A program made the translations under genes and the position numbers. This document shows, piece by piece, positions 16,527 through 56,046 of a stretch of 64,000 nucleotides of DNA. Under the pieces are notes generated by a model. It did not search any database, was not told the DNA's origin, and saw only the letters and a list, made by a program, of their open reading frames with translations. Source of the DNA: Peristeroidobacter agariperforans (GTDB taxonomy: Bacteria > Pseudomonadota > Gammaproteobacteria > Steroidobacterales > Steroidobacteraceae); assembly GCF_004138335.1 (NCBI RefSeq), contig NZ_RYFW01000008.1, positions 62,001-126,000 on the forward strand. The letters are read 5' to 3'. Position 1 is the first letter of the stretch; each line of letters opens with the position of its first letter.

Positions 16527-17165
16527 TCACGTTCCCACGAGCCTTTCCCACTTTGCAACTGACGCCTCGATCCAAGACTGTCGCGGCTTGCCGGTCGATA
16601 TTTCGGCTCGCATCGATGCTTCTGCCGCAAGGCGCGCTGCAACGAGATTCGTGACCTCATCGAGCCGAGAAGCATCGAAACATACGAGGCCATCCTCGTC
16701 CGCAACGACAATATCGCCGGTGCAAATGACCTGGCCGCCAATGGCCACCGGGCTTCCTATGCGACCCGGCCCCTCCTTGGAAGGACCACGGTGGCTGGTT
16801 CCGCGGGCAAAGCAGGCAAAAGGTTCGGGCCCGCGGAAGGCAGCGACATCTCTGACGGCTCCGTCGATGACAAATCCCGACATGCCGCGCTGTATGGCGT
16901 AACTTCTCGACAAGTCACCCACCAATGCACGTTCGAGGCAGTGCCCTCCGGCGACGATCAGGACGTCGCCCGCTTGCGCACGCCCAAGCGCCACGTGGAT
17001 GGCGAGATTGTCGCCGGCGCGCGTCTCGACAGTGAACGCCCGGGCAACGAGACAGGCGTGCCCGCAGTCATAGCGGTTCAGACCAGAGACGCCTCCCATT
17101 CGACCCAGCGCGTCTCCCACGACGGAAGCACCAGCTTGCCTCAAGACTTCCATAGCCACGCTCAC
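16527..17165 (-). CDS. RraA/HMG-aldolase-like family protein
   Basis: A 212-residue protein of the RraA-like (formerly demethylmenaquinone methyltransferase-like) fold, with the family signature GFVIDGAVRDV near residue 110 and the downstream GGQVICTGDIVVADEDG segment. Members include 4-hydroxy-4-methyl-2-oxoglutarate aldolases and oxaloacetate decarboxylases, with a G-x2-RD metal/substrate site as here, and also the RNase E inhibitor RraA. I place the start at a GTG (17163-17165) overlapping the stop of the serine hydrolase (GTGA), which indicates translational coupling; an ATG 12 bases on is the alternative. It is the last gene of the leftward operon from 23131. A catabolic aldolase acting on a 2-oxo acid fits the context, but this is inference. 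Confidence 0.82.
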   Translation of the reverse strand: MSVAMEVLRQAGASVVGDALGRMGGVSGLNRYDCGHACLVARAFTVETRAGDNLAIHVALGRAQAGDVLIVAGGHCLERALVGDLSRSYAIQRGMSGFVIDGAVRDVAAFRGPEPFACFARGTSHRGPSKEGPGRIGSPVAIGGQVICTGDIVVADEDGLVCFDASRLDEVTNLVAARLAAEASMRAEISTGKPRQSWIEASVAKWERLVGT

Positions 17166-19108
17166 CCGAGTCTCAGCCCCAGCAGATTCCAATAGTGCAG
17201 CAAGACGACGAACAGAACTGCGCAGGCACAGTGGACCGATGGCCAGGCGAGCCCACGCACCGAACGCCGCTTGGTAGCCATCACAACGAGGATCAGCAAC
17301 AGCGCCAGAGTGAGCGCCGCCACGGCGATGCCTATCGCAACTCCGACGAATAGTCGGGTAGGAACGCCTCGCGCCATGATTGGCGCGAGACCTCCCGCCA
17401 TCACCGAGCCGAGCAGCAGCGTCGTCATGACGATCAGCACACCGAGCAGTGCGAGAAGCGTCTTCAGCCGTGCGTCCGCGCTCGAGCCGATATTTTTCTT
17501 GCGAAACGCGTCGCGAACTGCAGCAGCCGCACTGATCAATATCAACAACAACCCGACAGCATGCCAGCGCGGATCCGCGAACCACTCGATGCGCCGCATT
17601 GGCACCAGCGACGATTTCAAGCTAAAGCCGTCGATACGTCCCTGCGCACGCTGAAATACAACCCGCTCGCCAAGCGAGTTCTGAAATACATCGGGCGCGA
17701 CGGGCATCCACTGTTCACGCGCGAGCAGTAACGTGCCGTTCGCCATCGGCTTGACCGTCACCGGCAGCGACCCCAGCAATTTTTCGAATGTCGTGAAGGA
17801 ACGTCGTTCGCTTCGATAAGCACCGGCGTACTGCGCCAGCTGCGGCCAGTCGCTATCGTTCGGCGCAACACGTGGCCGCGTAGCCGGCAAGTACCGGTCG
17901 ATAAATGCGCGCACGAACTCGCGCCGTGCATATCCGCCCTCTTGGCTGTTGTAGACGACGAACAATCCCAAGCCCGCATCGGGCACCAGCATCAGTTCGC
18001 TTTGCGTGTAATTCGTCGAGCCATCGTGACGGAGAATGCGACGGCCATTGCGGCGCCCATCCATCAAGCCCAAAGCCATTCCGTCCAGAGCGTCCGATAC
18101 TTGCGCGCTATGCTGCTGCATGACTTGAACGGTGCGTTCTTCGAGAATGCGCGCATCATCCAAAACGCCGCCCTGAAGGTGTGCGAGCATAAGTTTTCCG
18201 ATGTCGTCGGCGGTCGCAATCATGCCGCCGGCGGGTCCGCTCGGCGCCATATCTTCCACAGCTCCGGTCATCCGGCCGTTCCTATAAACGTAACCTCGAG
18301 CTCTATTGGAAAGCGCTCCACTGCCTGCGTCAGCGAACACGCTATCTCGCATGCGCAGGGGACTGAGAATGTTGTCAGCCGCGTACTGCGCGAAACTACG
18401 ATTCGAAATGCACTCCACCACATGCGCCGCCAGCAGTGCGCCCCAGTTGGAATACGGCCTCGCGGCGTGGGCGAGATCCTGTGGAGGCGGGAGCACCCGA
18501 GCTGGCATGTGACTCGCGAGAAACGCCCCCAGCGACGAATATTTGCTCGCGACCTGCGGAGCGAACGGAGCTCCAACCTCTTCGAACCCCGCCGTATGCG
18601 TGAGCAGATGGCGCATCGTCACCGGCGCGGTAGACGTGTCAGGTATCTTGAACCGCAGCAAATAGCGGTTCACATCGGCATCCAGATCGAGCCTGCCCTG
18701 CTCCACGAGCTGCATGACAGCCGTCCAGATGATCACTTTCGAGATCGAACCGACCGTGAACCGCGTCTTCAGAGGATCGACGCTCGTCCGCTGCTCCAGA
18801 TCGGCGTATCCGTAACCTTTTCCGAGCAGCACTGCGCCATCCTTGACCACCACGACGGCGGCGCCGGCGAGCTTATGAGCCGAGAACTGCGCCGCCATTA
18901 CGCCGTCGAAGAATATTTCCAGTTCGCGCGGCTCCAGAGCCCGTTCAGGCAACGCGACCGGTTCGGATCCTTCGGCCGCGCGTTGCTGAAGCTCCGGCAC
19001 AGAGACCGAGGCGAGATCGACCATTTCGGCGCGCACACCGGATGCAGGAACCGTGAGCAACGCGGCTGCAAGCGCCGCCACCCGTAAACAAACGTCCCAT
19101 GGATACAT
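17162..19108 (-). CDS. Serine hydrolase, beta-lactamase/MlrB-like, with membrane tail
   Basis: A 648-residue exported enzyme: signal peptide at 1-28, a class C beta-lactamase-type domain at about 55-400 and a hydrophobic C-terminus with about four membrane segments (about 535-645). The active-site SISK (Ser121, Lys124) and YSN (near residue 217) motifs are both present, plus LLTHTAGF, typical of DD-peptidase/esterase/peptidase members. It should sit in the inner membrane with the catalytic domain in the periplasm. The group includes D-stereospecific peptidases, esterases and MlrB of the microcystin pathway. It lies third in the leftward operon, 35 bp after the esterase. Hydrolase class is certain, substrate not. 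Confidence 0.88.
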   Translation of the reverse strand: MYPWDVCLRVAALAAALLTVPASGVRAEMVDLASVSVPELQQRAAEGSEPVALPERALEPRELEIFFDGVMAAQFSAHKLAGAAVVVVKDGAVLLGKGYGYADLEQRTSVDPLKTRFTVGSISKVIIWTAVMQLVEQGRLDLDADVNRYLLRFKIPDTSTAPVTMRHLLTHTAGFEEVGAPFAPQVASKYSSLGAFLASHMPARVLPPPQDLAHAARPYSNWGALLAAHVVECISNRSFAQYAADNILSPLRMRDSVFADAGSGALSNRARGYVYRNGRMTGAVEDMAPSGPAGGMIATADDIGKLMLAHLQGGVLDDARILEERTVQVMQQHSAQVSDALDGMALGLMDGRRNGRRILRHDGSTNYTQSELMLVPDAGLGLFVVYNSQEGGYARREFVRAFIDRYLPATRPRVAPNDSDWPQLAQYAGAYRSERRSFTTFEKLLGSLPVTVKPMANGTLLLAREQWMPVAPDVFQNSLGERVVFQRAQGRIDGFSLKSSLVPMRRIEWFADPRWHAVGLLLILISAAAAVRDAFRKKNIGSSADARLKTLLALLGVLIVMTTLLLGSVMAGGLAPIMARGVPTRLFVGVAIGIAVAALTLALLLILVVMATKRRSVRGLAWPSVHCACAVLFVVLLHYWNLLGLRLG

Positions 19109-19143
19109 GCATTCTTTCCGCTGGCGCTTCGATGGAGCGTCGC

Positions 19144-20139
19144 TCAGCCTTTCGGCCGCGAGCCGAGCACGATCGGCAGCATGCGATTGATGAGCACCGG
19201 CACCACCGAGATGTGATTCTCTCCTTGGATCTCCATGAACCGGGTTCGCAAACCCGACTTCTCCAGCGGTTGCAGCTTTTGATACAGCTCGCGTGCGCCG
19301 CTGACGATGCGAGCGCGTTGCAGCTGAGGCGCCAGTTTCTCGGCCACGGCCGGATTGAGCGACGGCGGCATCTTTTCGTCGTACTCGGCGACGTACAGCA
19401 GCAAGTGGGCATCGACCTGGCGCTTGTCCTGTGCCGCGATGAAACGTTCGGCTGAGTCGAGAACGTATCCGCCGTTGAAGCCCAGGCTCGGGCTGCCGCA
19501 TACATAATCGCGGAAGGCTTGCGGCTGCGTGAACAGCACGTGCAGTGCGAAGGAACAGCCCAGCGAATGGCCGAACAGCGTGCGCCGCTCGTCATCGATC
19601 TTGACCCGGCGTTTGATCCAGGGATCGAGCTCCTCGCGCAGGAATCCAAGGAATTGCATCGCCCCACCCATCTTCGGTGGCTCCACGCCCGGCGGCATTT
19701 CCTCGCGCAGCGGAACATCGGGCACGAAGTCGTAGAAGCGACGATGCGCGTTGAACGGCGTATCGCCGGGATAGGCGACGCCCACGATCACCGCCTGGTT
19801 GATGCCGGTGAACTGCGGCTGCCGGCCCTGCAAGCGAATCGCGTTCGCGAGCGGTTCAAACCAGGCGTTGCCGTCGAGGACATAAACAACGGGCCAACCA
19901 GACGCCGGCGCCTGCCCGACCGGCAGATAAACGAATATCCGATAGTCCTGGCCCGCCTTGGAGCGCATCGCGTGCTCCTCGGTGTTGGGCACAGGCACCG
20001 GCCGCGCGACCTCGGCCTCATTCGCCAGTGAGGTTCGAGACCACACCGAGGCAGCGATCCCAAGCAGCAGCGCAAGCGCAAGGATCAGGAAAGGGACCTG
20101 GGCTCGCGCCCCGCCGAAGCTCGCTATCGTCGTCTGCAT
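19144..20139 (-). CDS. IroE-like alpha/beta-hydrolase esterase
   Basis: A 331-residue esterase-D-family hydrolase (PF00756 type) with an N-terminal hydrophobic signal anchor (about residues 12-32). VYVLDGNAWF, APASGWPV, the nucleophile elbow GHSLG and the GSPSLG segment resemble the siderophore esterases IroE and Fes, where the order APASGxP, LDGNA, GHSxG and SPSL is the same. A C-terminal GENHIS histidine completes the triad. It should act in the periplasm. I use the ATG at 20139 because GGAG lies seven bases upstream; an ATG at 20151 is also possible. It follows TonB receptor 1 by 91 bp. The siderophore-esterase resemblance is from memory of IroE and is the main clue to the substrate of this operon. 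Confidence 0.85.
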   Translation of the reverse strand: MQTTIASFGGARAQVPFLILALALLLGIAASVWSRTSLANEAEVARPVPVPNTEEHAMRSKAGQDYRIFVYLPVGQAPASGWPVVYVLDGNAWFEPLANAIRLQGRQPQFTGINQAVIVGVAYPGDTPFNAHRRFYDFVPDVPLREEMPPGVEPPKMGGAMQFLGFLREELDPWIKRRVKIDDERRTLFGHSLGCSFALHVLFTQPQAFRDYVCGSPSLGFNGGYVLDSAERFIAAQDKRQVDAHLLLYVAEYDEKMPPSLNPAVAEKLAPQLQRARIVSGARELYQKLQPLEKSGLRTRFMEIQGENHISVVPVLINRMLPIVLGSRPKG

Positions 20140-20230
20140 TGATTGCTCCATCGATGATTCAAAAAGCGGCGCGTCGGTCCCACCACCGGCGCGCCAGTCG
20201 GCGATCCTTACGATCGCCCCTCTCGCAGTC

Positions 20231-23131
20231 TCAAAGACTGATGCGCACTCCGCCATAGAAGTAGCGCCCGATCGTGTCGTATAGCCCCGGGTTGGTGGCG
20301 AGCGCGGAGATGGCGAACTCATAGGGCACGATCGCGGGATCGTTATCGAACACGTTGTTCACACCGGCGAAGAGCTCGAGCGAGCCTGCACCGAGTTGCA
20401 GCGGCACGCGCGCCGACAAATCCAGATACCATTCGGCGGCAATCGAGTTGTCCTCGATGTCCTCCGGTCCATAGGTATTGTCGTACTTGCCCGAACCGAT
20501 GTAGCGCACCTGCCCCGACACACCGACATGATCGGTCGCATAAGAAACATTGGCGTTCCAGCGCAACTTCGGCAGCCCCGAATTGTCACGGCGCAATTCG
20601 CCGGCTCGGTCGATCCTTTCCAGCGCACGCGTATCGCTCTGTTCGATCAGATAGCCGCCGAGCACGCTGACGGTAATGTTTGCATCGCCGCTCTCGAATA
20701 ACGCAGGCGCGCTGAAGCCGTAGCGCGCCTGCCAATCGACACCCCGATTGCGAAACTCTGCGACGTTCAGACCGGAGCTGGTGATGCTCGCGAGCTGACC
20801 CGATGCGTCTCGCTGCACGCCAGCGCAATAGCTGTTTGGATAACTGCCGCCGTAACAGCCGTCCAGGATCGTAGGCACCGGAACCCCCAGCAGAATCGCA
20901 TCGGCGATCCGGATGTCGTACCAATCGAGCGAAAGGTTGAGGCCGGGAACGGCCGGCGGCGCTACGATCAAGCCTGCGGTCCGGGTCCGCGCCGTCTCTT
21001 CATTGAGATTCGGATTGCCGCCGGTGAGCACGCGAATGAGCCCATTCGAGGCCGCGAAATTGGCAGGCAAGCCAGCGGCGGCGCAGGACTGCGCGTAGGC
21101 CGGATTGGCCGCTTGGCTGGCCGCATCGCAGGGATCGACCGGAGTGAAGAACGACACGCCCTCGGGCGCGAACAATTCCGCGATATTGGGTGCGCGAATA
21201 TCTTGCGAGAGCGAACCTCGAAAAGTAACGGAGTGCGCCGTATCCCAAACGAAACCCAGCTTCCATGTCTCGACGCTGCCGATCGTGTCGTAGTCGGTGA
21301 GTCGCGCAGCGGCGCTCAGTTCGAGGCTGCGGGCGAAGCTCTGCTGCGTGAGAACGGGCAGCAGTATTTCGGCAAAGGTCTCCTTCACCGAGAACTCGCC
21401 CGACAGCGCCTGACCGGTGCCCAGCAAGAACGCCCCGGCAGCCGTCACGTCGTCGCCGGCGCCGGTGTATTGCTCCTTCCGGTACTCCACGCCGGCGGCG
21501 ATCGACAGCGGCCCCGCCCACAGCTCCCAGGGTTGACCCCGAATTTCAGCCGACCCTACGGTCTGGCTCTGCTCCTGCGTGAAGAACGAAGTTCCAGAAA
21601 CATAGTCGATCGCGGCGGCGCTCGGCGCACCGAAGCCGAATAGATTGATCGGTTGACATCCTTGCGCAGCCGCCGCCGTGAGCGGATTCAGCGTCGCACG
21701 ACAGACGATCTGTCCATTGGCATCGCGGATGGCATCGGCGGCAAAGGCAAATCGTGCGGGCATGAAATTGTTGCTCAGACGCTCGGTCGAATCCGCCTCG
21801 CCATATTGCACATAGGTTTCCCAAGACCAGGCTGCGCCGAACTCGCCCGCCAGTCCGAGCACCGCGCGCCGCATCCGTTGCTCACGGTTGGTGCGGATGA
21901 ACCCCATGTCCGTGTTCAGTCGTCCCAGCGCGAATGCTGGAATCTGATTGTCCTGCAGCAGTGTTCGCAACTCATCGGGAAGAAACGCGTTGTCGGCGCG
22001 CACCGGCAAATTACCCAGGACGAAAGATTGCACCACGTCGGAGTGCGCGTCTGTCAGCGCATATCCGCCTTCGAAGAAGACCCGCACGCGCTCGGTGAGA
22101 TCCAGATCGGCGGACATGAAAGCGTTTTTGCGCTCGTACGGTTGCGACAGCGCCGCGTACTGGCCGAAGTTGGCGCCGTCGCCGCCGATCATGTAAGGCG
22201 GAGAAACGATCGAACCTCGCTCGAACGGGGCCAAGCCGCCGCCTGGCGTGAATTGCAGATTAGCGACCGGACCGGGCCCGAGGATCAGCCCGCCCTCGGT
22301 AGCGATCGTCAGATTGGCATCCGGGCGGATGAGTCGCGCCGGAATGCCATCAGTCGGGCCGGTGTCGGCCGGATTGCGAATGACGCCCCAGCGGCGTGCG
22401 CCCCAGTCGCGATCCTTCTGATCGGCGATACCGGCGCTCTTCTGGTATTCGGCGGCTAGCAGCACGTGGCCGCGCCCCGCGAAAAAGTCATCGCCCGCGG
22501 CCAAAGCAAAACGAGTGTCGCCGGCATCGCCCTGTTCGGCAGCTCCATACTGCGCAGTCGCCCGCACGCCCTGCAAATCTTTGGCGTAGATCACATTCAC
22601 CACACCCGCGACGGCATCGGAGCCCCAGGCTGCGGAGGCGCCGCCAGTGACTGTCTCGATGCGCTCCAGTGCCACACTCGGCAACACGCTCACATCCACG
22701 GACCCGCCGACAGTCGTCGGTGCGTGCCGCCGCCCATTCACCAGCACGAGTGTGCGCTTAGGCCCGAGCGCGCGTAGATCGAGAAACGCCGAGCCCGCAC
22801 CCCCTGAAGAATCATTGGCTGCGGGACTGACGCCGGCCAGAAACGCCGGCGACTCGTTGACGAAGCTCGCCACGTCGGTGGCGCCGCTGATCAGGAAGTC
22901 CTCCGCGGTGAGCGACATTACCGGCGTAGGCATCACGGCGTTCTCACGACGTATGCGAGAAGCCGTCACCACCACCTCCGCCACTTCCTGCAGTTCCTGA
23001 TGGACATCCGCCATCGGCGATTCCGCAGCGTGCAGGACCGCCGCGGGCCAGCCTAGCACCGCGGCAGCACACGCTGTCGCAAGCGGGGCTCCCCCCGAGT
23101 TGAGTCGACCATGGCCACGTCGTGTACGCAT
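20231..23131 (-). CDS. TonB-dependent receptor 1
   Basis: A 966-residue outer-membrane receptor: signal peptide to about residue 36 (ending LHAAES), a TonB box EVVVTASR near 50, a plug domain with LVLVNGRR and VTGGASAAWGSDAVAGVVN, then a long beta barrel with IRAPNIAELF and the C-terminal strand ending YGGVRISL. The final residue is Leu rather than the usual Phe. The start at 23131 has GGGAGAGG upstream. It leads the leftward operon (receptor, esterase, serine hydrolase, RraA-like) and is divergent from the peptidase/transport operon at 23312. It is a clear paralogue of the receptor at 36950 (shared DRDWG, ATEGGLI, GPG and FxPGG segments). Import of a peptide or siderophore-like compound is inferred from neighbours. 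Confidence 0.93.
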   Translation of the reverse strand: MRTRRGHGRLNSGGAPLATACAAAVLGWPAAVLHAAESPMADVHQELQEVAEVVVTASRIRRENAVMPTPVMSLTAEDFLISGATDVASFVNESPAFLAGVSPAANDSSGGAGSAFLDLRALGPKRTLVLVNGRRHAPTTVGGSVDVSVLPSVALERIETVTGGASAAWGSDAVAGVVNVIYAKDLQGVRATAQYGAAEQGDAGDTRFALAAGDDFFAGRGHVLLAAEYQKSAGIADQKDRDWGARRWGVIRNPADTGPTDGIPARLIRPDANLTIATEGGLILGPGPVANLQFTPGGGLAPFERGSIVSPPYMIGGDGANFGQYAALSQPYERKNAFMSADLDLTERVRVFFEGGYALTDAHSDVVQSFVLGNLPVRADNAFLPDELRTLLQDNQIPAFALGRLNTDMGFIRTNREQRMRRAVLGLAGEFGAAWSWETYVQYGEADSTERLSNNFMPARFAFAADAIRDANGQIVCRATLNPLTAAAAQGCQPINLFGFGAPSAAAIDYVSGTSFFTQEQSQTVGSAEIRGQPWELWAGPLSIAAGVEYRKEQYTGAGDDVTAAGAFLLGTGQALSGEFSVKETFAEILLPVLTQQSFARSLELSAAARLTDYDTIGSVETWKLGFVWDTAHSVTFRGSLSQDIRAPNIAELFAPEGVSFFTPVDPCDAASQAANPAYAQSCAAAGLPANFAASNGLIRVLTGGNPNLNEETARTRTAGLIVAPPAVPGLNLSLDWYDIRIADAILLGVPVPTILDGCYGGSYPNSYCAGVQRDASGQLASITSSGLNVAEFRNRGVDWQARYGFSAPALFESGDANITVSVLGGYLIEQSDTRALERIDRAGELRRDNSGLPKLRWNANVSYATDHVGVSGQVRYIGSGKYDNTYGPEDIEDNSIAAEWYLDLSARVPLQLGAGSLELFAGVNNVFDNDPAIVPYEFAISALATNPGLYDTIGRYFYGGVRISL

Positions 23132-23311
23132 GAAGCCTCTCCCCTGTTTTTTGTTCGATTGACGCGCGTCGCGTGCAGCGCCGCGCTTTCGAGATTGGAG
23201 CACGCGATTTTCTCAGTTGCAAATATTTTTCTTTTTTTGAAATTTCATGTTGCCAATTCTGCTAATACCGCGCGATAGTAGCAACCGCACGATTCATGGG
23301 GAGCGGGCCAG
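23132..23311. promoter_or_regulatory. Bidirectional promoter region of the eleven-gene cluster
   Basis: These 180 bp separate the start codons of TonB receptor 1 (leftward) and the DUF885 gene (rightward) and must hold both promoters. The stretch 23208-23270 is strikingly AT-rich for this genome (AAATATTTTTC, TTTTTTTGAAATTTCATG) and includes the small palindrome GAAATTTC. No regulator gene is adjacent, so control is likely from the XRE-cupin or Lrp genes further right; that is inference. Confidence 0.55.
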
Positions 23312-25015
23312 ATGACTGAGCCGACGAGGGCTGGGACCACAGCGGCGATCGCGCTTGCGCTCGCATCCATGCTGACCTCACAGGCGGCAAACGGCGACCA
23401 AGCGCAGCGTACGATTGCGGAAATTGCTGCTGCCCTGCGCGCCAGCCGTCACTCCGAGCCCGGAGCTCTCCCGGACAACACCGCGGCGGCACTCCGCTCG
23501 CGTCATGAAACCGAAGACCGGCTCCACGAGCAGTTGCTCACACTCAAAGAAGCGCAGCTGCAGCCAGCAGCCGCAATCGCTTTCGAGGCCCTGCGAGCAA
23601 CCGTCGAAGCCGAGCGCGAGGTACGCGTGTGCCGACGCGAGCTGTGGAACGTCGATCACATCAGTGGGTGGCATATTCAGCTCGGTGCGTGGGCCGAGCG
23701 TCAGCCAGTCGATTCGCCAGCCGCGCGCTCGCGGGCGCTCGCTCGATGGCAACAAGTCCAAGGCTTCATCCATCGCGAAACGGCACTGCTGCGAGCTGGA
23801 CTCGATCTCGGATACTCGGCGCCCCAAGCCGTGGTACGACGCGTCGTACGGCAACTCGATGATCAGCTGGAATCCGCGGCGGCTTCATCGCTCGCCTCGC
23901 CCGCGAAGCGCACCGACGACGCCAATTTCGCTCGCGACCAGCAGCTGATCTTGCAGAAGGACGTGCTGCCCGAACTGCGGCGCTATCGCGATTTCTTGCG
24001 CGACGAGTATGTGCGCAAGGCTCGTAGTTCGATCGGCGTCTCATCGTTGCCGCACGGCCGGGACTGCTATCGCGCCCTGCTCAGAAGAGAAACGAGCCTG
24101 GGCAGCTCGCCCGAAGAGATCTTCGAGCGCGGCCAGAAGATGATCGAGGAGAACCGAGCCGCGATCGTCGAGCTCGGCGCCTTGCAGTTCGGTACTCGAG
24201 ATGTCACGCAGATCATGGCGCGGCTCCAGGCGGATCCAGCCAATCGGTTCGACTCACCCGAAGCGGTGCTGCAGTTCACGCGCGAAGTGACGGAACGCGC
24301 TCGCGAGGCATCGAAAGGCTTATTCATCGCACTTCCTCGAGCGCCACTGGAAGTGGTCGCCTTCCCAACGTATCAGCGCGACAGCGGCATGAACCCGTAT
24401 TACTCGCCCTCGCGCGACGCTGAGCCCGCTCGCTATCTGGTCAATCTGCAAACCTGGCGCGACAACGCCCGGAGCCAGGTCGAAGTCACGAGTGTGCATG
24501 AGGCGTGGCCCGGCCATCACGTACAGATCTCGCTCGCTCAGTCGCTGCCGTATGGCAATGAGTTGCTCGCCGTCGCGCGCTTTCCTGCGTACATCGAAGG
24601 CTGGGCCCGTTATGCAGAGCGGCTCGCTGATGAATTCGGGATGTACACCACTGCGCACGCGCGCATTCTCTGGCGAGCGAAGCCGGGCTTCGGCATGGTC
24701 GTCGACCCAGGATTGCATGCTTTCGACTGGCCGCGCGAGCGCGCCCTCGAATTTCTCATGTCGAGCGGACTGTTCCCGAGCGAGCAGAGCGTGAACGACA
24801 TGATCGATCGCATCGCCGTCATGCCGGCGCAGCTCACTGCATACGACACGGGCGGTTCTGAAATCCTGAGTCTGCGCGAGCTGGCACGCGAGCGGCTAGG
24901 CAAGAAGTTCGATTTGCGCCAGTTCCATGCCCAGCTTTTGGGAATGGGATACGCACCGCTCGGTACGGTACGCAAGCTCACCCTGCAATGGATCGAGCGC
25001 TCGGAGCAGCCATGA
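23312..25015 (+). CDS. DUF885 family exported metallohydrolase
   Basis: A 567-residue DUF885 protein with an N-terminal signal (AIALALASMLTSQAANG). The zinc motif HEAWPGHH (starting near His396; HExxxGHH is the family hallmark) and the downstream EGWARYAE glutamate identify it as a metallopeptidase-like hydrolase. Members are mostly periplasmic and probably cleave peptides or peptide-like amides. It opens the rightward operon and its stop overlaps the start of the POT transporter (ATGA). The GMNPYYSPSRD segment is also typical of the family. The enzyme likely makes short peptides that the next gene product imports. Confidence 0.9.
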   Translation: MTEPTRAGTTAAIALALASMLTSQAANGDQAQRTIAEIAAALRASRHSEPGALPDNTAAALRSRHETEDRLHEQLLTLKEAQLQPAAAIAFEALRATVEAEREVRVCRRELWNVDHISGWHIQLGAWAERQPVDSPAARSRALARWQQVQGFIHRETALLRAGLDLGYSAPQAVVRRVVRQLDDQLESAAASSLASPAKRTDDANFARDQQLILQKDVLPELRRYRDFLRDEYVRKARSSIGVSSLPHGRDCYRALLRRETSLGSSPEEIFERGQKMIEENRAAIVELGALQFGTRDVTQIMARLQADPANRFDSPEAVLQFTREVTERAREASKGLFIALPRAPLEVVAFPTYQRDSGMNPYYSPSRDAEPARYLVNLQTWRDNARSQVEVTSVHEAWPGHHVQISLAQSLPYGNELLAVARFPAYIEGWARYAERLADEFGMYTTAHARILWRAKPGFGMVVDPGLHAFDWPRERALEFLMSSGLFPSEQSVNDMIDRIAVMPAQLTAYDTGGSEILSLRELARERLGKKFDLRQFHAQLLGMGYAPLGTVRKLTLQWIERSEQP

Positions 25016-26346: not shown

Positions 26347-26355
26347 GGTCCATTC

Positions 26356-27861
26356 GTGCGCATCCTGACCGCCGCCATTGTCACCGAGACCAACACCTTC
26401 TCGCCGCAGCCCACGGACTGGGAGCAGTTCCAGGCATGCGGGCTGTGCTGGCGAGAAGGCGACTACATCGAAGAGACCGCGTTCACTGCCCCTGTCCTGC
26501 TGATCAAGCGGCTGGGCGAACGTGATGGACACGAGGTGGTGCTCGGACCTTCGGCCTACGCCGATCCGGCCGGGCCGACCCGACGCGGAGTTTATGAAAG
26601 CCTGCGGGAGGAGATTTTGCGACGGATCGAAACCGATGGACCGTTCGATGCCGTTCTGCTCACGTTACACGGCGCCATGGTCGCAGAGGGTTATGAGGAC
26701 TGCGAAGGCGACCTGCTGCACAAGGTACGTGAGCGCGTCGGTGCGACCGCGTTCGTAGGCGCCATGCTCGATCCGCATTGCCATCTGACCGCGGCCATGG
26801 TCAGCGCTGCGGACGCCATCACGATCATGAAGGAATATCCACATACGGACGGCGAACAGCGCTTGCGAGAGTTGTATCGCATTTGCCTGCGCGTGCTGGC
26901 CGGCGAGATCCGGCCCGCCGCCGCACTGATCGATTGCGGGTTGGTGGGAGTGTGGCCAACCTCGCACGAGCCCATTCGATCGCTGGTCGACCGGATCAGT
27001 CTCCGCGAGACGCACGAGCCGATCGTTTCCATCGGCTTCGCCCATGGTTTTCCGTGGGGCGACGTTCCAGAAGCCGGAGCCCGCGTTCTGGTACTCACAA
27101 ACGAAGCGCTCGACGTGGCGGAGTCCACGGCAGTTGCGATCGCCGATGAAATCTGGTCGCTACGCGATTTCGCGCGGATCGAGACGGTCAGCGTCTCTGA
27201 AGCGCTGAGCGAAGTTGCCGTCAGTCGCCAAGGCCCGGTTGTTCTAGCCGACATCGCCGACAATCCGGGCGGCGGCGCGCCGGGCGACTCTACTTTCATC
27301 CTGCGCGAAGCTTTGAACCGCGGGCTGAGAGACATCGCCATCTCACTCGTCCACGATCCACAAAGCGTAGATCAGTGTTTCGACGCTGGGCTCGGTGCTC
27401 CTGCGAATCTGCGGATCGGCGGCAAACACGGCCGCGTCTCTGGTGAACCGCTCGAGGTGCGCGCAACGATTCGCGGGCTGAGCGAACGACATTCTCAGCA
27501 ATCCCCAGCGGAGGGCCCAAGGATTCCGCTGGGCCGCTCTGCATGGGTCGAGATCGATGGCGTGCACGTTATTCTCACGCACTCGCGGTACCAGGCGGTC
27601 AGCCCCGACGTCTTTAGCGGACTCGGACTCGATCCCGCGGCGCTACGTGCTGTGATCGTCAAATCCACAAATCACTTCCGCGCACGATTCTCAGCCATCG
27701 CAGATCGCATCCTGAGTGTGGATACACCGGGCGCGCTGTCGCTCGACTTCGCCAATCTCCCCTACCAGCGTCGAGCGCGGAACGTTTGGCCCCGGTGCGA
27801 CAGCCGGCCCGAGCAGACGGTCGTACTGCGCCAGCTCCAGCCGCGTCGTTTCATCCTGTGA
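26356..27861 (+). CDS. M81-family metallopeptidase (MlrC-type)
   Basis: A 501-residue protein of peptidase family M81, whose founding member MlrC degrades linearised microcystin. The N-terminal signature ILTAAIVTETNTFSP, the segment LLTLHGAMVAEG, the metal-ligand region LDPHCHL and ADNPGGGAPGDST near residue 305 are all present, and the length matches MlrC (about 500). It starts at a GTG 10 bp after the POT gene, with GAGG upstream. It should work in the cytoplasm on imported peptides. M81 proteins are widespread and most have no known substrate, so microcystin itself is not implied. Confidence 0.9.
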   Translation: MRILTAAIVTETNTFSPQPTDWEQFQACGLCWREGDYIEETAFTAPVLLIKRLGERDGHEVVLGPSAYADPAGPTRRGVYESLREEILRRIETDGPFDAVLLTLHGAMVAEGYEDCEGDLLHKVRERVGATAFVGAMLDPHCHLTAAMVSAADAITIMKEYPHTDGEQRLRELYRICLRVLAGEIRPAAALIDCGLVGVWPTSHEPIRSLVDRISLRETHEPIVSIGFAHGFPWGDVPEAGARVLVLTNEALDVAESTAVAIADEIWSLRDFARIETVSVSEALSEVAVSRQGPVVLADIADNPGGGAPGDSTFILREALNRGLRDIAISLVHDPQSVDQCFDAGLGAPANLRIGGKHGRVSGEPLEVRATIRGLSERHSQQSPAEGPRIPLGRSAWVEIDGVHVILTHSRYQAVSPDVFSGLGLDPAALRAVIVKSTNHFRARFSAIADRILSVDTPGALSLDFANLPYQRRARNVWPRCDSRPEQTVVLRQLQPRRFIL

Positions 27862-27875
27862 CATTGGAACATCTC

Positions 27876-28835
27876 ATGCAGTTGCGTGTCATCGACTCGA
27901 TTCTCATTCGCCTGCACCTGGGTTATCCCGCCTGCATAGCACTAGTGCGCGAGGCGATGCAGAGTCTTTCCCGCGGCAAGCCCATCCATGCGCCCAGGCA
28001 GATCCTGCCGTTGCGCACCGGCCAGGCGTTCGGCGTCATGCCCGGAGCGATGGGCCTCGGAGAGGTATTCGGCGCCAAGTTGGTGAGCGTGTTTCCTCCT
28101 GGCGCTGGCGCGCACTCGTCCCATCAAGGCGTAGTTGTGCTGTTCGATCCGGACTCCGGCGCGCCCGTGGCGATCCTGGACGCCGGCGAGATCACTCGAA
28201 TACGGACCGCCGCTGCGAGCGCCGTCGCTACTGCTGCGCTGGCGCGCGCCGAAGCCTCGCAACTCGCAATCCTCGGTTATGGTGAGCAGGCGCGAGCGCA
28301 CATCGCTGCAATCAAAGAAGTGCGCCCGCTTTCGCGCATCCTCGTATGGGGTCGAGATCGCGAACGACGTGAACGCTTCGTCGCCGAGGTCGCCGAGTCG
28401 AGCGGCATCGCGTGCATCGCCGTAGACAGTGCGCAGGCTGCCGCCAGCGAGGCCGACATCATCTGCACGACCACTTCGGCGAGTGAGCCCATTCTCGAGG
28501 GTGCATGGGTACGTCCTGGCACACACGTCAATATCGTTGGTTCCAGTCATGCAGGTCCGGCGGAAATCGATGTGGCTCTGGTGGTCGCGTCGCGCTTCGT
28601 CGCGGATCATCGTGCATCGGTGTTACGACAGGGGGCTGAGTTCCTGCGAGCCAAGGCGGCTGGCCGTGTCGACGACGATCATGTCGTCGCCGAAATCGGC
28701 CAGGTGCTGCTGGATGAGGTGCCGGGTCGCAGTAACGATGAGCAGATCACCGTGTACAAGTCGCTGGGCCACATCGTCCAGGACCTGTGCAGCGCCTGGC
28801 ACGTGTATCAGGCAGTGATGAGGCATGACCGATGA
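27876..28835 (+). CDS. Ornithine cyclodeaminase/mu-crystallin family imine reductase
   Basis: A 319-residue Rossmann protein of the OCD/mu-crystallin family. The conserved REAM helix near residue 23, the NAD(P) motif LGYGEQARAHI near 135 (consensus GxGxQA), and the C-terminal GQVLLDEVPGR and TVYKSLGHIVQDL segments are standard. Family reactions include ornithine cyclodeamination, alanine dehydrogenation and reduction of imines such as iminosuccinate. The start is the ATG at 27876, 14 bp after the M81 gene; its stop overlaps the next gene by four bases. A tightly coupled OCD-family plus threonine-dehydratase-like pair recalls EutC-EutB of hydroxyectoine breakdown and BhcD-BhcB of the beta-hydroxyaspartate cycle. 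Confidence 0.88.
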   Translation: MQLRVIDSILIRLHLGYPACIALVREAMQSLSRGKPIHAPRQILPLRTGQAFGVMPGAMGLGEVFGAKLVSVFPPGAGAHSSHQGVVVLFDPDSGAPVAILDAGEITRIRTAAASAVATAALARAEASQLAILGYGEQARAHIAAIKEVRPLSRILVWGRDRERRERFVAEVAESSGIACIAVDSAQAAASEADIICTTTSASEPILEGAWVRPGTHVNIVGSSHAGPAEIDVALVVASRFVADHRASVLRQGAEFLRAKAAGRVDDDHVVAEIGQVLLDEVPGRSNDEQITVYKSLGHIVQDLCSAWHVYQAVMRHDR

Positions 28836-29803
28836 GCACCACGCAACGACTCCACGAAATCGTCCTGCAAGCGCGGCACGCCGATTTCATCTCCGCATCC
28901 GAGCGCCTGGCGCCGTATGTGATGCCCTCCCCGCTCATAGCGTTCCCTGGCAGACCAGGGCGGACATTACGCTTGAAGGCGGAGAATCTGCAGCCGCTCG
29001 GCTCATTCAAGATCCGTGCGGCGTTCAACGTTCTGCTGCAAGCCGCGAGTCGGCGCAGCCTGTCACGCATTGCAACTGCAAGTGCAGGCAACTTCGCGCA
29101 GGGACTCATGCTCGCCGCACGGCAGCTGGGCGCGCAACTGAGTGTGCACATTCCAGACACGGCCGCCGAAAACAAGCGCGCCGCGCTTCGAAACATGGGC
29201 GCGAATCTGTTTGTTCATTCCTTCACTGACTGGTGGCGGATCCTCATGACACGCGAAACGGGCGCGGCGGAAGAGCTATTCATACATCCGGTATGCGAAC
29301 CCGATGTGATCATCGGCAACGGCTCGATCGGTGTGGAACTGCTCGAGCAATGGCCTGAAGTGGACACCGTCGTCGTCCCCATCGGCGGCGGTGGCCTGGC
29401 CGCGGGAATCGCCCTGGCGCTCCGCTCGGCAGGACGGCGCATTCGCATCGTCGGCTGCGAGATCGAAACGGCCGCACCGCTCAGCGCAGCACGCGCCGCG
29501 GGCCGCCCGGTGCCGGTGAATCGCGCTCCCAGCTTCGTCGACGGTATAGGCTCGAACTGCGTTCTCGATGAAATGTGGCCGCTGTTGCGCGATCTCATCG
29601 ACGATGTCGTTGTCGTGAGCGTGGAACAAGCGCGTGCAGCCGTGCGCACACTGGCACAGACCAATCACCTGGTCGTCGAAGGGGCCGCCGCAGTCGCGTT
29701 CGCAGCTGCCAGCTCGCCCGACTTCGAGGCGCGCAACGTTGCAGCCATTCTTTCCGGCGGCAACATCGATCACCGTGTGCTGTGTGAGATTCTGTCTTCA
29801 TGA
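28832..29803 (+). CDS. Threonine dehydratase-like PLP enzyme
   Basis: A 323-residue fold-type II PLP enzyme. The PLP lysine lies in LGSFKIRAA (about residue 63), followed by the SAGNFAQG asparagine loop and the phosphate-binding glycine loop PIGGGGLAAG. It lacks the C-terminal ACT-like regulatory domain of biosynthetic IlvA, like catabolic dehydratases, beta-hydroxyaspartate dehydratase and EutB. It should eliminate water or ammonia from a beta-hydroxy amino acid to give an enamine/imine, a suitable substrate for the reductase encoded just upstream. It overlaps its neighbours by four bases on both sides. Enzyme family certain, substrate inferred. Confidence 0.88.
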   Translation: MSTTQRLHEIVLQARHADFISASERLAPYVMPSPLIAFPGRPGRTLRLKAENLQPLGSFKIRAAFNVLLQAASRRSLSRIATASAGNFAQGLMLAARQLGAQLSVHIPDTAAENKRAALRNMGANLFVHSFTDWWRILMTRETGAAEELFIHPVCEPDVIIGNGSIGVELLEQWPEVDTVVVPIGGGGLAAGIALALRSAGRRIRIVGCEIETAAPLSAARAAGRPVPVNRAPSFVDGIGSNCVLDEMWPLLRDLIDDVVVVSVEQARAAVRTLAQTNHLVVEGAAAVAFAAASSPDFEARNVAAILSGGNIDHRVLCEILSS

Positions 29804-31026
29804 GTAGCGCCGCCATGCATTGCGCCTCGCCTCCGGATTTCCAGACTCGCTTCCCGCTCGGAGCGAGCATCAGCGTTGCCGAGCTCGAGCGCGATCCCTA
29901 CCCCTTCTTCGCTCGAGTCCGCGAGCGCGAACCGCTGACCTGGGTAGAAGCACTGAAGATGTGGTACGTCACGGGATACGATGACGTCCGACGTGTGCTG
30001 ATGGACGGCGTGAACTTCACGGCGACCGCCGAACGTTCACCTATTCGCGACACCTTTGGCGAACAGATGCTGAGCAGTGAGGGGGAGGCGCACAGGCGAT
30101 ATCGCCGGGTATTCCTGCAGGGATTCAGCGCAGTCAGCGTAACTCGTCTGGAATCTCATATCAGAGCGGCCGCGGCAGGATTGGCCGATGAGTGCAGCGG
30201 CGCGTCTACAATCGAGCTGCGGACGCGTTTCGCGAGCCGCCTGCCGATCCACACCATCCTGTTGGCGTTCGGGATGGAACTGGCGGCCGAGCAGGATCTG
30301 CGCCGCTGGTATGACGACTTCGAACGTGCTCTGGCGAACTTCGAAGGCGATCTGCACACGCGCGAACGCGCTCAAAGTAGCACAAAGCAGTTTCATGAGT
30401 ACCTGCACGCAGGATTACAGGCCGCGCGCCGGAACCCCGACGACTCGCTCCTGTCGAGCCTCGTGCAGGCGCCGGCGGATCGGCGCCTGAGCGACGAGGA
30501 ACTCGTCCGCAACCTCTCCATTGTTTTCTTCGGCGGCATATCCACCGTGGAGGCGCTGATCCTGAACAGTCTATGGGCGCTGTCCGCGCATCCGGAACTG
30601 ATCGAACGCGTGCGCAGTGATGAGGCCCTGCTGGCGAATGCGATCGAGGAAACGATGCGCTGGCTGGGCCCCGTGCAGTCGGCGACTCGATACGTGGTGC
30701 AGGACGTGGAGTTGCGAGGAGTGACGCTGCGCGCAGGCGAAACGGTGAATTGCATGCTCGGCGCGGCCAACCACGATCCTCTCATGTTCCCTCATCCGGA
30801 ACGCTTCGACATCACACGCCCGAACCTGACCGCGCACATGGGCTTCGCGACCGGGCATCACATGTGTCTTGGCTTCCGGCTGGCTAAAGCGCAGGTGAGA
30901 ATTGCGCTGCAAATCCTGCTATCGCGCTTTGCTCCGTTCGAAGTCATCGATCGAGAAGCGAATCCGCCCACCGGCTACGAGTTCAGGCAACCCCGCGCCA
31001 TGTGGATTCGGGGAGCTGTGCGATGA
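29800..31026 (+). CDS. Cytochrome P450
   Basis: A 408-residue soluble bacterial P450. The haem loop FATGHHMCLGFRLA (FxxGxHxCxG) supplies the Cys ligand near residue 349, and EETMRW is the ExxR motif of helix K. The I-helix reads FFGGISTVEAL where most P450s have AG-x-[DE]-TT: the acidic residue is Ile here and the threonine is kept, so proton delivery may differ. It depends on ferredoxin and reductase partners not encoded nearby. It overlaps the genes on both sides by four bases, so it is an integral step of the pathway, probably an oxidation of a side chain or N-alkyl/acyl group. Confidence 0.93.
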   Translation: MSSAAMHCASPPDFQTRFPLGASISVAELERDPYPFFARVREREPLTWVEALKMWYVTGYDDVRRVLMDGVNFTATAERSPIRDTFGEQMLSSEGEAHRRYRRVFLQGFSAVSVTRLESHIRAAAAGLADECSGASTIELRTRFASRLPIHTILLAFGMELAAEQDLRRWYDDFERALANFEGDLHTRERAQSSTKQFHEYLHAGLQAARRNPDDSLLSSLVQAPADRRLSDEELVRNLSIVFFGGISTVEALILNSLWALSAHPELIERVRSDEALLANAIEETMRWLGPVQSATRYVVQDVELRGVTLRAGETVNCMLGAANHDPLMFPHPERFDITRPNLTAHMGFATGHHMCLGFRLAKAQVRIALQILLSRFAPFEVIDREANPPTGYEFRQPRAMWIRGAVR

Positions 31027-31577
31027 GCGCTCGCGACAATGGCATGTCCTCGCGCGCATCCACACTAGCGGGCTATGCCGTTGCATTCTGGTCGCTGCTT
31101 TATCTCTTGCCTCATCTGGTGTGGGCGCTCGGCGTGAGGGCGGGATTCGTAGCTCTGCATCCATCTATCGCGACGCTTCCACAATGGCGGACCATCAATT
31201 GGATTGCGTCCGCTATCCTTGGGATCGCCGCCCTGCTCGGCCTCGCATTACGACGGCGCTCTCCCAACGCAGCGGTACATCGCGCGAAGCTCACCGTCGC
31301 ATGGTTTGGCTCGTGCATAGCGACGGCGCACGGCCTGGTGGGCATCGGCATGCGAATCGCAACGATCTCCGGCTGGCCGCAGCCTGCTGTGCCCGCCTGG
31401 CTCTACTGGGATCTGCTGGTTTTCGAGCCCTGGTTCCTGATCGAAGGCGTGTTGCTCGCACTCGCCGGCGGCTTGTTGCTGCCGGACAGATCACAACGTA
31501 GACGATGGGCCTTGCTGTGCGTGGCGGGCACAGCTATCGCAATCATCTTTGCGCTGATGCGAGTGAAGATCTGGTGA
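31023..31577 (+). CDS. Small integral membrane protein (DUF3995-like)
   Basis: A 184-residue protein with four clear hydrophobic helices (about residues 16-38, 60-80, 93-115 and 128-150) and a possible fifth at the C-terminus. The first helix YAVAFWSLLYLLPHLVWALG resembles DUF3995 proteins, a family of unknown function. It starts at an ATGA overlap with the P450 stop and closes the seven-gene rightward operon. Its last 35 bp overlap the convergent FAD oxidase gene. Function unknown; a membrane accessory or exporter is possible. Confidence 0.75.
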   Translation: MSARDNGMSSRASTLAGYAVAFWSLLYLLPHLVWALGVRAGFVALHPSIATLPQWRTINWIASAILGIAALLGLALRRRSPNAAVHRAKLTVAWFGSCIATAHGLVGIGMRIATISGWPQPAVPAWLYWDLLVFEPWFLIEGVLLALAGGLLLPDRSQRRRWALLCVAGTAIAIIFALMRVKIW

Positions 31578-32794: not shown

Positions 32795-32812
32795 TGGAAA
32801 TTCAATTTTCCA
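32795..32812. promoter_or_regulatory. Candidate operator TGGAAA-N6-TTTCCA
   Basis: A perfect inverted repeat with six-base arms and a six-base spacer (TTCAAT) lies 14 bp before the D-aminoacylase ATG at 32826, in the 116-bp gap between it and the divergent FAD oxidase. Similar AT-rich dyads occur at 35227-35243 and 39836-39852, each beside an XRE-cupin regulator or D-amino-acid gene. It overlaps the likely ribosome-binding region, so bound protein would block expression. Binding partner inferred. Confidence 0.4.
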
Positions 32813-32825
32813 TTGTGGAAATGAC

Positions 32826-35166: not shown

Positions 35167-35226
35167 GCTTGCCGCGCCCGCAAGGGGCAATACCCTTCCC
35201 GTAGGGAAGGTTAGCGCCCCCGCCAT

Positions 35227-39736: not shown

Positions 39737-39835
39737 CGATCGTCCCCCTGCAAGCACGTTGATCACCCGGCGCGGGTCGGGCCGCGCCGTCCCCACAGCA
39801 CAGCACCAAGGGGTGTTGGTGTCAACGAAAATTTT

Positions 39836-39852
39836 CTATTTTGGAAAAATAG
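39836..39852. promoter_or_regulatory. Candidate operator between TonB receptor 2 and PLP gene
   Basis: CTATTTT-GGA-AAAATAG is a perfect dyad with seven-base arms in the 180-bp gap between the receptor start (39736) and the PLP enzyme start (39917). It sits in an AT-rich patch (39826-39862) that stands out from the surrounding sequence and could serve both directions. A TTGGAAA core is shared with the dyad at 32795. Confidence 0.45.
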
Positions 39853-54969: not shown

Positions 54970-55084
54970 TGATTGTTTTGGATATATTAGTTTCGCCTTG
55001 GTCTGATACCCCTCTTGCAAAGAGCGGGGTTGCTCGGTTCGATTAGTGTTACCAGGCAATCACCTAACCAAAAGAGCAACCCGC

Positions 55085-55805: not shown

Positions 55806-55811
55806 CGGAAC

Positions 55812-56045: not shown

Positions 56046-56046
56046 A

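What the first reader, a model, noticed from the sequence alone, without database searches (positions are those of the whole stretch)
16527..31577. Divergent eleven-gene cluster: candidate scavenging pathway for an unusual peptide or foreign siderophore
Four leftward genes (TonB receptor, IroE-like esterase, serine hydrolase, RraA-like) and seven rightward genes (DUF885 hydrolase, POT transporter, M81 peptidase, OCD-family reductase, threonine-dehydratase-like, P450, small membrane protein) start from one 180-bp region. Start/stop overlaps of four bases occur at 17162, 25012, 28832, 29800 and 31023, so both arms are operons. The order makes a pathway: outer-membrane import, periplasmic ester and amide cleavage, peptide uptake, cytoplasmic proteolysis, then amino acid conversion and oxidation. 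The esterase resembles siderophore esterases (LDGNA, GHSLG, SPSLG), which fits a TonB cargo. I know of no described system with this gene set.
Basis: partly seen in the sequence, partly recalled or inferred. Interest (0 to 1): 0.78.

Follow-up and report, generated by a model that had tools for sequence, protein, structure and literature searches.

The report
Island for eating D-amino-acid peptides
A 27-kb stretch of a bacterial genome holds a gene set that seems jointly controlled and looks built to import and dismantle a peptide with mirror-image (D-) amino acids; it is put together like the known microcystin-eating genes but lacks their ring-opening enzyme and has an esterase instead.

Summary
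The eleven genes, the 180-bp divergent promoter and the five 4-base overlaps are real. The cluster does not end at 31577. A palindrome, TTTCN7GAAA, occurs four times in the window, each in a promoter region between 16.5 and 43.4 kb. Those promoters also serve a DauA-type D-amino-acid dehydrogenase, two D-aminoacylases, a D-serine-deaminase-like enzyme, a second TonB receptor and two XRE-cupin regulators (20 genes in all). A pattern fitted to the four sites hits nowhere else in the genome. The palindrome lies 22-30 bp upstream of M81 in 6 of 6 relatives with the closest regulator. The set parallels the microcystin mlr island, including an MlrD-clade POT, but lacks MlrA, and its M81 fails the MlrC model. 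Best reading: a regulon for catabolism of a D-amino-acid-containing, perhaps ester-closed peptide, the esterase taking MlrA's ring-opening place. A siderophore cargo is not supported. Esterase and M81 orthologs are listed on contigs of equal length in two cases, which suggests that the two arms are conserved together. The substrate is unknown.

The parts
16527..17165 (-). RraA-like aldolase/decarboxylase family protein, GTG start overlapping the S12 stop
   Evidence: PF03737 121 bits; best NCBIfam PRK06201 212 bits, below its cut-off 231; GTGA overlap
17162..19108 (-). S12 (beta-lactamase-fold) serine hydrolase with SISK at 112, YSN at 210 and four C-terminal hydrophobic segments (numbered from the start at 19081); taken as a membrane-anchored periplasmic hydrolase, perhaps D-specific
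   Evidence: PF00144 201 bits; motifs and segments; solved relatives are mixed: IS11 esterase and a PBP homologue rank first, alkaline D-peptidase, SurE, Lip3 DL-peptidase and ClbP below
19144..20139 (-). Esterase with one N-terminal hydrophobic segment; proposed ring-opener
   Evidence: PF00756; closest solved chain BES 2qm0 188 bits, IroE 2gzr 80 bits; segment
20231..23131 (-). TonB-dependent receptor 1
   Evidence: PF00593, PF07715; ATG
23228..23242 (.). Palindrome site 1, TTTCTTTTTTTGAAA, between receptor 1 and DUF885
23312..25015 (+). DUF885 putative metallohydrolase (HEAWPGH)
   Evidence: PF05960 337 bits; motif; one of 12 DUF885 matches in this genome
25012..26346 (+). POT transporter of the MlrD clade
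26356..27861 (+). M81 metallopeptidase with the MlrC zinc residues
27876..28835 (+). OCD/mu-crystallin family, imine reductase-like
   Evidence: PF02423; closest solved Delta1-pyrroline-2-carboxylate reductase 6t3e 165 bits
28832..29803 (+). Threonine/serine dehydratase- or racemase-like PLP enzyme
   Evidence: PF00291; closest solved catabolic threonine dehydratase 2gn0 162 bits, serine racemase 152 bits
29800..31026 (+). Cytochrome P450 with FATGHHMCLG haem motif
31023..31577 (+). DUF3995 small membrane protein
   Evidence: PF13160; hydrophobic segments
31543..32709 (-). DauA-type FAD D-amino-acid dehydrogenase (DAO); E87 and H48 of DauA replaced, five other listed active-site residues kept
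   Evidence: 3nyc 346 bits; mapping
32807..32821 (.). Palindrome site 2, TTTCCATTGTGGAAA
32838..34415 (+). Amidohydrolase of the N-acyl-D-amino-acid deacylase kind (1), MlrF-related; an ATG at 32826 is also possible
   Evidence: PF07969; 31% to MlrF
34393..35190 (-). XRE-cupin regulator 1 (type A, goes with M81/DAO clusters); start uncertain, an ATG at 35226 is also in frame
   Evidence: 54-60% orthologs in L038-L042 and L045
35228..35242 (.). Palindrome site 3, TTTCAACAATTGAAA, upstream of regulator 1
35297..36925 (-). N-acyl-D-amino-acid deacylase kind (2)
   Evidence: D-aminoacylase 1rjp 208 bits; 58% relative in L205 beside POT and S12 genes
36950..39736 (-). TonB-dependent receptor 2
   Evidence: PF00593, PF07715; in-frame ATG
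39833..39847 (.). Palindrome site 4, TTTCTATTTTGGAAA
39917..41206 (+). D-serine-deaminase-like PLP enzyme (DSD)
   Evidence: PF14031; 3gwq D-serine deaminase 301 bits
41218..42336 (+). Membrane protein without a Pfam match at E 0.001, 42-44% to genes beside related clusters
42333..42917 (+). XRE-cupin regulator 2 (type B, goes with POT/S12/DgcA clusters)
42902..43357 (+). Lrp/AsnC-type regulator
   Evidence: PF01037, PF13412

Best explanation
A self-regulated catabolic island of 20 genes (16527-43357) for a peptide that contains D-amino acids and probably an ester bond. Proposed route: receptors 1 and 2 import it; in the periplasm the esterase opens or trims it, and the membrane-anchored S12 hydrolase, DUF885 and the two deacylases (which have signal-like N-termini) cut it; the MlrD-clade POT carries fragments inward; M81 cleaves them; the DauA-type dehydrogenase and the D-serine-deaminase-like enzyme remove amino groups from D-residues; the imine reductase-like, dehydratase-like, RraA-like and P450 enzymes process what is left. 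The XRE-cupin proteins, regulator 1 above all, bind TTTCN7GAAA at four promoters. Shown by computation: gene content, overlaps, the shared palindrome and its recurrence with the closest regulators, mlr-like architecture, POT clade. Inferred: substrate, order of steps, cell location, binding by the regulator.
For: Palindrome: 4 exact matches in the window, 0.66 expected, 1 of 100 shuffles reaching 4, all in the four island promoter regions. The pattern fitted to them hits only these four places genome-wide, control 0. Test elsewhere: 22-30 bp upstream of M81 in 6 of 6 loci whose regulator is closest (229-244 bits), 0 of 3 at 199-206 bits, 0 of 14 at 60-190 bits, 2 of 76 without one (Fisher 2e-6). 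Neighbourhood: of 73 M81 loci with over 6 kb each side (of 102), DAO in 18, XRE-cupin in 18, both in 14. In the 10 of 17 genomes with a single DAO match at E 1e-60, it lies in the M81 locus each time. POT: window POT, MlrD and 7 cluster POTs fall on one side of a 100/99 branch against 22 other POTs; MlrD's best hit in this genome is the window POT, 1.6e-90 against 1.9e-57 for the next. The authentic mlr island holds S12, POT, M81, D-aminoacylase and a DAO 42% identical to the window's. D-amino-acid families. Arms together.
Against: No substrate, expression or binding data. The palindrome was first seen by inspecting these very promoters; with one mismatch allowed the excess is modest (24 against 15.5). 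The six loci that confirm it are related alphaproteobacteria, so not six independent events, and the three next-closest regulators lack it. Only part of the set is widely linked: in the 73 loci, RraA, esterase, DUF885, PALP and TonB receptor homologs above threshold number 0, P450 and the membrane protein 1 each. S12, POT and M81 are large families, and the nearest solved S12 relative is an esterase. The neighbour label on the M81 tree needs 11 changes (19.1 in shuffles). D-aminoacylase and DAO families also serve ordinary D-amino-acid use.
Confidence: 0.7

Rival explanations
1. Foreign-siderophore scavenging: the receptor imports a ferric ester siderophore, the IroE-like esterase opens it, and the other enzymes use the amino acids.
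For: Esterase closest solved relative is BES (188 bits), then fungal siderophore esterases, Fes-type and IroE; a TonB receptor precedes it in the same direction.
Against: Best Fur-box match in the 180-bp promoter 11 of 19; 111 places in the window score 11 and 25 score 12. Siderophore receptor models far below cut-off for both receptors, e.g. TIGR01783 25.7 and 49.5 of 223.5 bits. No iron gene recognised among the island proteins scanned. The shared palindrome goes with an XRE-cupin regulator.
Confidence: 0.07
2. A microcystin (mlr) pathway proper, in a new host.
For: S12, POT, M81 and D-aminoacylase parallel MlrB, MlrD, MlrC and MlrF; M81 matches the MlrC model over nearly its full length.
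Against: MlrA absent: best hit 26.6 bits on another contig. M81 scores 315 of the 999 bits required and groups apart from MlrC (quick tree, MlrC a long branch). No M19 (MlrE) among the 19 island proteins scanned. MlrB only 28.6% identical.
Confidence: 0.05
3. General use of D-amino acids and peptidoglycan or mixed D,L-peptides from dead cells, with no single specialised substrate.
For: Related clusters in genus and family members carry DgcN, DgcA, M19 and S15-type genes; two D-aminoacylase-kind, a D-serine-deaminase-like and a DauA-type enzyme here.
Against: No DgcN (DUF1611) or DgcA (enolase-fold) among the 19 island proteins scanned. Esterase and P450 are not expected for peptidoglycan peptides, and the esterase seems to travel with M81.
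Confidence: 0.2
4. Chance neighbours: several unrelated catabolic operons side by side.
For: Several members (PALP, RraA-like, DUF885, esterase) show no linkage in the 73 loci examined.
Against: One palindrome at all four promoters and, in its fitted form, nowhere else in the genome; repeated co-occurrence of the core.
Confidence: 0.05

Closest known systems
Microcystin degradation island with mlrC-A-D-B-E-F, Sphingosinicella microcystinivorans genome (L201, L202)
   Same: TonB receptors, S12 hydrolase (MlrB), POT (MlrD), M81 (MlrC), D-aminoacylase (MlrF) and a DAO-family dehydrogenase in one region; same proposed periplasm-to-cytoplasm route (PMC12474180, passages)
   Different: Here no MlrA, no M19 found, M81 fails the MlrC model; adds esterase, DUF885, OCD, PALP, P450, D-serine-deaminase-like enzyme and XRE-cupin regulators with a shared palindrome
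M81-DAO-XRE-cupin clusters of Phenylobacterium, Rhizomicrobium and other alphaproteobacteria (L038-L042, L045); I found no paper on their function
   Same: M81, DAO and XRE-cupin type A in all six, with the palindrome upstream of M81; S12 at 34-38% in 5 of 6, OCD in 4 of 6, POT in 2 of 6
   Different: No esterase, P450 or PALP homolog at E 1e-10 in the stretches held
POT-S12-membrane protein-XRE-cupin clusters with DgcA in genus and family members (L179, L181, L183) and in an alphaproteobacterium (L205)
   Same: POT 55-57%, S12 35-37%, membrane protein 42-44%, XRE-cupin type B 50-58%
   Different: No M81 in these stretches; DgcA instead (381 and 352 bits of cut-off 400 in L181 and L205) and, in L181, DgcN (456 of 480) and M19; DgcN and M19 in L179 and L183 by eye only, not seen in L205
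DL-peptidases Lip3/Lip7 and ester-first breakdown of the cyclic lipopeptide orfamide
   Same: S12 fold (9sn1); two-step logic of ester opening then backbone cleavage (PMC13188892, passages)
   Different: There the orfamide steps are split between two organisms; here both are proposed in one regulon, untested
ClbP-type membrane-anchored S12 peptidases
   Same: S12 domain with SxxK and YxN and C-terminal membrane helices (PMC9889268, passages)
   Different: Sits in a catabolic set; four hydrophobic segments against three helices; sequence match weak (34 bits); D-Asn-specific residues not tested

Membership tests
mlr microcystin pathway | MlrA ring-opening protease | tested here: not met
   Own genome: only a 26.6-bit hit on another contig
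mlr microcystin pathway | MlrC (NF041767 cut-off 999 bits) | tested here: not met
   315 bits; zinc residues E11, D139, H141, H163 kept, positions of Q468, S485 and R492 changed, E70 aligned to Ala, though the gap placement there is uncertain
mlr microcystin pathway | MlrD-clade POT transporter | tested here: met
   42% to MlrD; one side of a 100/99 branch, MlrD a long branch
mlr microcystin pathway | MlrB serine hydrolase | tested here: inconclusive
   Same family; 28.6% over 357 residues; different C-terminal part
mlr microcystin pathway | MlrF D-aminoacylase | tested here: met
   Two homologs at 30-31%, family level only; MlrF located by a published primer
mlr microcystin pathway | MlrE M19 dipeptidase | tested here: not met
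   No M19 among 19 island proteins scanned with Pfam (regulator 2 not scanned; rest of genome not searched)
mlr microcystin pathway | Degrades microcystin | not testable with these tools
   Needs an assay
Siderophore uptake and hydrolysis | Fur-controlled promoter | tested here: not met
   Best 11 of 19 against a recalled consensus; 111 window places score 11 and 25 score 12
Siderophore uptake and hydrolysis | Siderophore-type TonB receptor | tested here: not met
   Listed NCBIfam siderophore models are all far below cut-off
Siderophore uptake and hydrolysis | IroE/Fes-like esterase | tested here: inconclusive
   Family likeness only: BES 188 bits, IroE 80 bits
DauA D-amino-acid dehydrogenase | Active-site residues H48, Y53, E87, R222, E246, Y249, R305 | tested here: inconclusive
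   5 of 7 kept; E87 to V, H48 to L (residue list from PMC11193025 passages)
XRE-cupin regulon | Shared operator-like site at regulator and target promoters | tested here: met
XRE-cupin regulon | Regulator binds the site | not testable with these tools
   Needs gel shift or reporter

The most novel reading that the evidence does not exclude
A complete single-organism regulon that takes up and mineralises a cyclic D-amino-acid depsipeptide or lipopeptide. The esterase opens a lactone ring where MlrA opens a lactam, and an S12 hydrolase, an MlrD-clade POT and an M81 peptidase do the rest. It was assembled by joining two older peptide-catabolic modules, which one alphaproteobacterial genome still keeps about 0.4 Mb apart, each with its own XRE-cupin regulator (types A and B).
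Probability: 0.35. Interest if true: 0.78.

Novelty: new variant of a known kind. Interest (0 to 1): 0.62.

Why it matters
Cyclic peptides with D-residues resist most proteases, and the mlr pathway is the best-known bacterial route for one class of them (own knowledge). This island suggests that mlr is one branch of a broader, modular family of D-peptide catabolic islands marked by an MlrD-clade POT and, in one branch, an XRE-cupin operator that can be searched for. It offers testable genes for the two-step breakdown of ester-closed lipopeptides, for which the passages I saw of a commentary name only a handful of enzymes (PMC13188892).

Tried and rejected
Siderophore cargo: Fur box and receptor models gave no support. 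Microcystin pathway proper: no MlrA, MlrC model below cut-off, M81 apart from MlrC in a quick tree. A close M81 in the same genus: of 98 genomes (this one included) 19 have an M81 at E 1e-30; the best other is 44%, in another genus of the family. Type-B operator in the window: among five type-B promoter regions no 4-base dyad was shared by more than two, and none of the 12 best was in the window promoter regions checked. Permease fold: model too poor to use (pLDDT 58), not searched. S12 model is moderate (pLDDT 62), so one search is read only as S12 family. Sphingomonad ortholog cluster by genome search: 6 of 249 (E 1e-100) and 2 of 6 (E 1e-80) genomes had an M81, none above 44%, so the S. rhizophila neighbourhood could not be read. 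Plasmids: 493 records, all under 60%. Esterase in 296 genomes of the order: 5 with hits at E 1e-25, this genome among them, best other 39%, neighbourhoods not read. P450 in 118 genomes: 5 with hits at E 1e-60, this genome among them; of the other four, one (L158) has it by M81 and S12, one (L157) sits on a 7-kb contig with a TonB receptor, one (L156) lies near M19 and a DUF885-like piece, one (L155) shows no such neighbour. No Rfam match in 13000-46000. Organism: no tool named it and I did not establish it. Papers: searches were searches; only passages were seen of PMC9982164, PMC12474180, PMC10845958, PMC6563193, PMC7082461, PMC11193025, PMC6167471, PMC7232508, PMC9889268 and PMC13188892; no paper was read whole.
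Full report
OBSERVATION. The eleven ORFs, their strands, the 180-bp divergent region and the five four-base overlaps are as reported. Family assignments hold. The window is part of contig 16 of a 7.65-Mb genome; no tool named the organism.

THE CLUSTER IS LARGER. Right of 31577 come a DauA-type FAD D-amino-acid dehydrogenase (3nyc, 346 bits), an amidohydrolase of the D-aminoacylase kind, an XRE-cupin regulator, a second D-aminoacylase-kind protein (1rjp, 208 bits), a second TonB receptor, a D-serine-deaminase-like enzyme (3gwq, 301 bits), a membrane protein, a second XRE-cupin regulator at 42333-42917 and an Lrp-type gene. Regulator 2 was missed by my first ORF pass.

SHARED PALINDROME. TTTCN7GAAA occurs four times in 64 kb, at 23228, 32807, 35228 and 39833. 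The expectation is 0.66, and 1 of 100 shuffles reached four. All four lie in the promoter regions of receptor 1/DUF885, dehydrogenase/deacylase 1, regulator 1, and receptor 2/deaminase-like gene. By its own base make-up each region would hold a site with probability 0.0025-0.0095 (the last region as taken includes some 50 bases of the receptor gene). With one mismatch allowed the excess is modest, 24 against 15.5 expected, 1 of 100 shuffles reaching 24. A degenerate pattern fitted to the four sites hits only these four places in the genome, 0 in the reversed-pattern control; that is circular for their presence but shows no further sites of this form. Because the motif was found by looking at these promoters, I tested it elsewhere. 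Of 102 M81 loci, 99 were scored (3 dropped for short upstream sequence or a truncated match). It lies 22-30 bp upstream of M81 in 6 of 6 loci whose regulator scores 229-244 bits, in 0 of 3 at 199-206, 0 of 14 at 60-190, and 2 of 76 with no such regulator (Fisher 2e-6 for 6 of 9 against 2 of 90). The six are related alphaproteobacteria and not independent events. Over whole loci the motif is less sharply enriched: 18 in 526,871 bases of 28 cluster loci against 24 in 1,337,104 bases of 72 control loci.

CONSERVED NEIGHBOURHOODS. Among 73 of 102 M81 loci with over 6 kb on each side, DAO is found in 18, XRE-cupin in 18, both in 14 (Fisher 2e-8), S12 in 8, OCD in 3, DSD in 3, POT in 2, deacylase 2 in 2, P450 in 1, the membrane protein in 1; PALP, DUF885, TonB receptors, esterase and RraA in 0 at the thresholds used. 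In 17 genomes searched for DAO (18 loci given, two from one genome), 16 have a match at E 1e-60 and 10 have only one; by coordinates all 10 lie in the M81 locus. Loci L179, L181, L183 (family and genus members) and L205 (an alphaproteobacterium) carry POT (55-57%), S12 (35-37%), the membrane protein (42-44%), XRE-cupin type B and a DgcA-like gene, without M81. DgcN and M19 were checked by HMM in L181 only, seen by eye in L179 and L183, and not seen in L205. Window regulator 1 is closest to type A (54-60%) and regulator 2 to type B (50-58%). One genome, G725, holds both modules apart: M81-DAO-XRE-cupin-S12 near 1.20 Mb (L106; its regulator scores 204 bits to regulator 1, 140 to regulator 2) and POT-S12-DgcA-deacylase 2-XRE-cupin near 1.61 Mb (L205; 162 and 190 bits). 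The window island therefore looks like a join of two modules.

ARE THE TWO ARMS CONSERVED TOGETHER? Esterase and M81 orthologs are listed with longest contigs of equal length: 13,712 bases (80%, 83%) and 612,060 bases, both named Sphingosinicella rhizophila (59%, 57%). Esterase and P450 orthologs share 42,837 bases (91%, 94%). Equal length is strong but indirect evidence; those contigs could not be opened. The P450 list (best 120 of 678) shows no 612,060-base contig, so the P450 may be a later addition. Of 118 genomes, 4 besides this one have a P450 at E 1e-60 (48-54%); in one of them (L158, same order) it lies by M81, S12, an M55 D-aminopeptidase and a TonB receptor, while L155 shows no such neighbours. 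Against wide conservation: the esterase has no hit over 39% elsewhere in 296 genomes of the order.

COMPARISON WITH mlr. The authentic island (L201, L202, from the S. microcystinivorans genome) reads: TonB receptor, acyl-CoA synthetase-like, MFS, mlrC, mlrA, mlrD, mlrB, M19-like, D-aminoacylase-like, acyl-CoA-type genes, aminotransferase-like, DAO-like, S58 peptidase, TonB receptor (S58 by HMM, the other non-mlr names by eye or by likeness to window proteins; mlrA-D named by eye and by likeness to 7ylq and the window proteins). Published primers fall in the M19-like gene (mlrE, 1 mismatch) and the D-aminoacylase-like gene (mlrF, 2 mismatches). Against the window: MlrC 37.7%, MlrD 42.1%, MlrB 28.6%, MlrF 30-31%, DAO 42.3%. 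MlrD, the window POT and 7 cluster POTs lie on one side of a 100/99 branch against 22 others, MlrD on a long branch. MlrC groups elsewhere in the M81 tree; the window clade lies near DAO-linked M81s with weak support, 81 (quick tree without bootstrap). MlrA is absent from the window genome. MlrC's zinc residues E39, D167, H169, H191 map to E11, D139, H141, H163, while several substrate-pocket residues differ (residues from PMC9982164 passages). So it works like mlr but is not a member.

MECHANISM. The S12 protein has SISK and YSN motifs and four C-terminal hydrophobic segments. Its solved relatives rank IS11 esterase and a PBP homologue first, then alkaline D-peptidase; SurE, Lip3 and ClbP also match, so D-specificity is inferred. 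The dehydrogenase keeps 5 of 7 DauA active-site residues but has Val for E87, which interacts with the guanidinium of D-arginine, so D-arginine is an unlikely substrate. The esterase is nearest BES (188 bits). In orfamide breakdown by a soil community, ester opening by one member precedes backbone cleavage by another (PMC13188892 passages), which suggests the ring-opening role proposed here. This is the least secure step.

VERDICT. A new variant of the mlr-like kind of D-peptide catabolic island, with a well-supported candidate regulon and an unknown substrate.

Noticed in passing
window 5585, 6984, 15534: A 22-base sequence resembling a tRNA 3' end (GGTTCGAGTCC...) occurs exactly twice and once with 3 mismatches, the last copy just left of the island; ARAGORN finds no tRNA in the window. 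Possible interspersed repeat or old integration scar; no copy in the 20 kb right of the window.
   Followed up: partly
window 3835-4329 and 50690-51145: Two closely similar glutathione-S-transferase-like ORFs lie on either side of the island (by eye).
   Followed up: no
window 51301-51564 and 52001-60000: An IS3-type OrfA-like ORF (by eye) followed by a stretch of lower G+C (0.535-0.572) right of the island, possibly mobile DNA.
   Followed up: no
window 43407-44198: ORF resembling tryptophan 2,3-dioxygenase, convergent with the Lrp gene (by eye), possibly a neighbouring amino-acid catabolic gene.
   Followed up: no
G000, whole genome: Twelve DUF885 matches over the cut-off in one genome.
   Followed up: no
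P0118: A 795-residue metagenome protein listed with M81 and alpha/beta-hydrolase domains, named M81/thioesterase: hydrolase and M81 in one chain, reminiscent of the esterase plus M81 pairing here.
   Followed up: no
L201:19780-20000 with L202:1-919, and L202:916-2406: MlrE and MlrF, called of unknown function in PMC6167471 (passage), are here an M19 dipeptidase-like (by eye) and a D-aminoacylase-like protein, located by published primers.
   Followed up: partly
L181, L183, L179, L205, L090 promoter regions: A shared stretch like TTGACAATTCTCCAATCAGGA upstream of type-B regulators, resembling the type-A palindrome (by eye): a possible type-B operator.
   Followed up: partly
L131 and L056: Two M81 loci without a detected regulator still carry the palindrome 91 and 172 bp upstream of M81.
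   Followed up: partly
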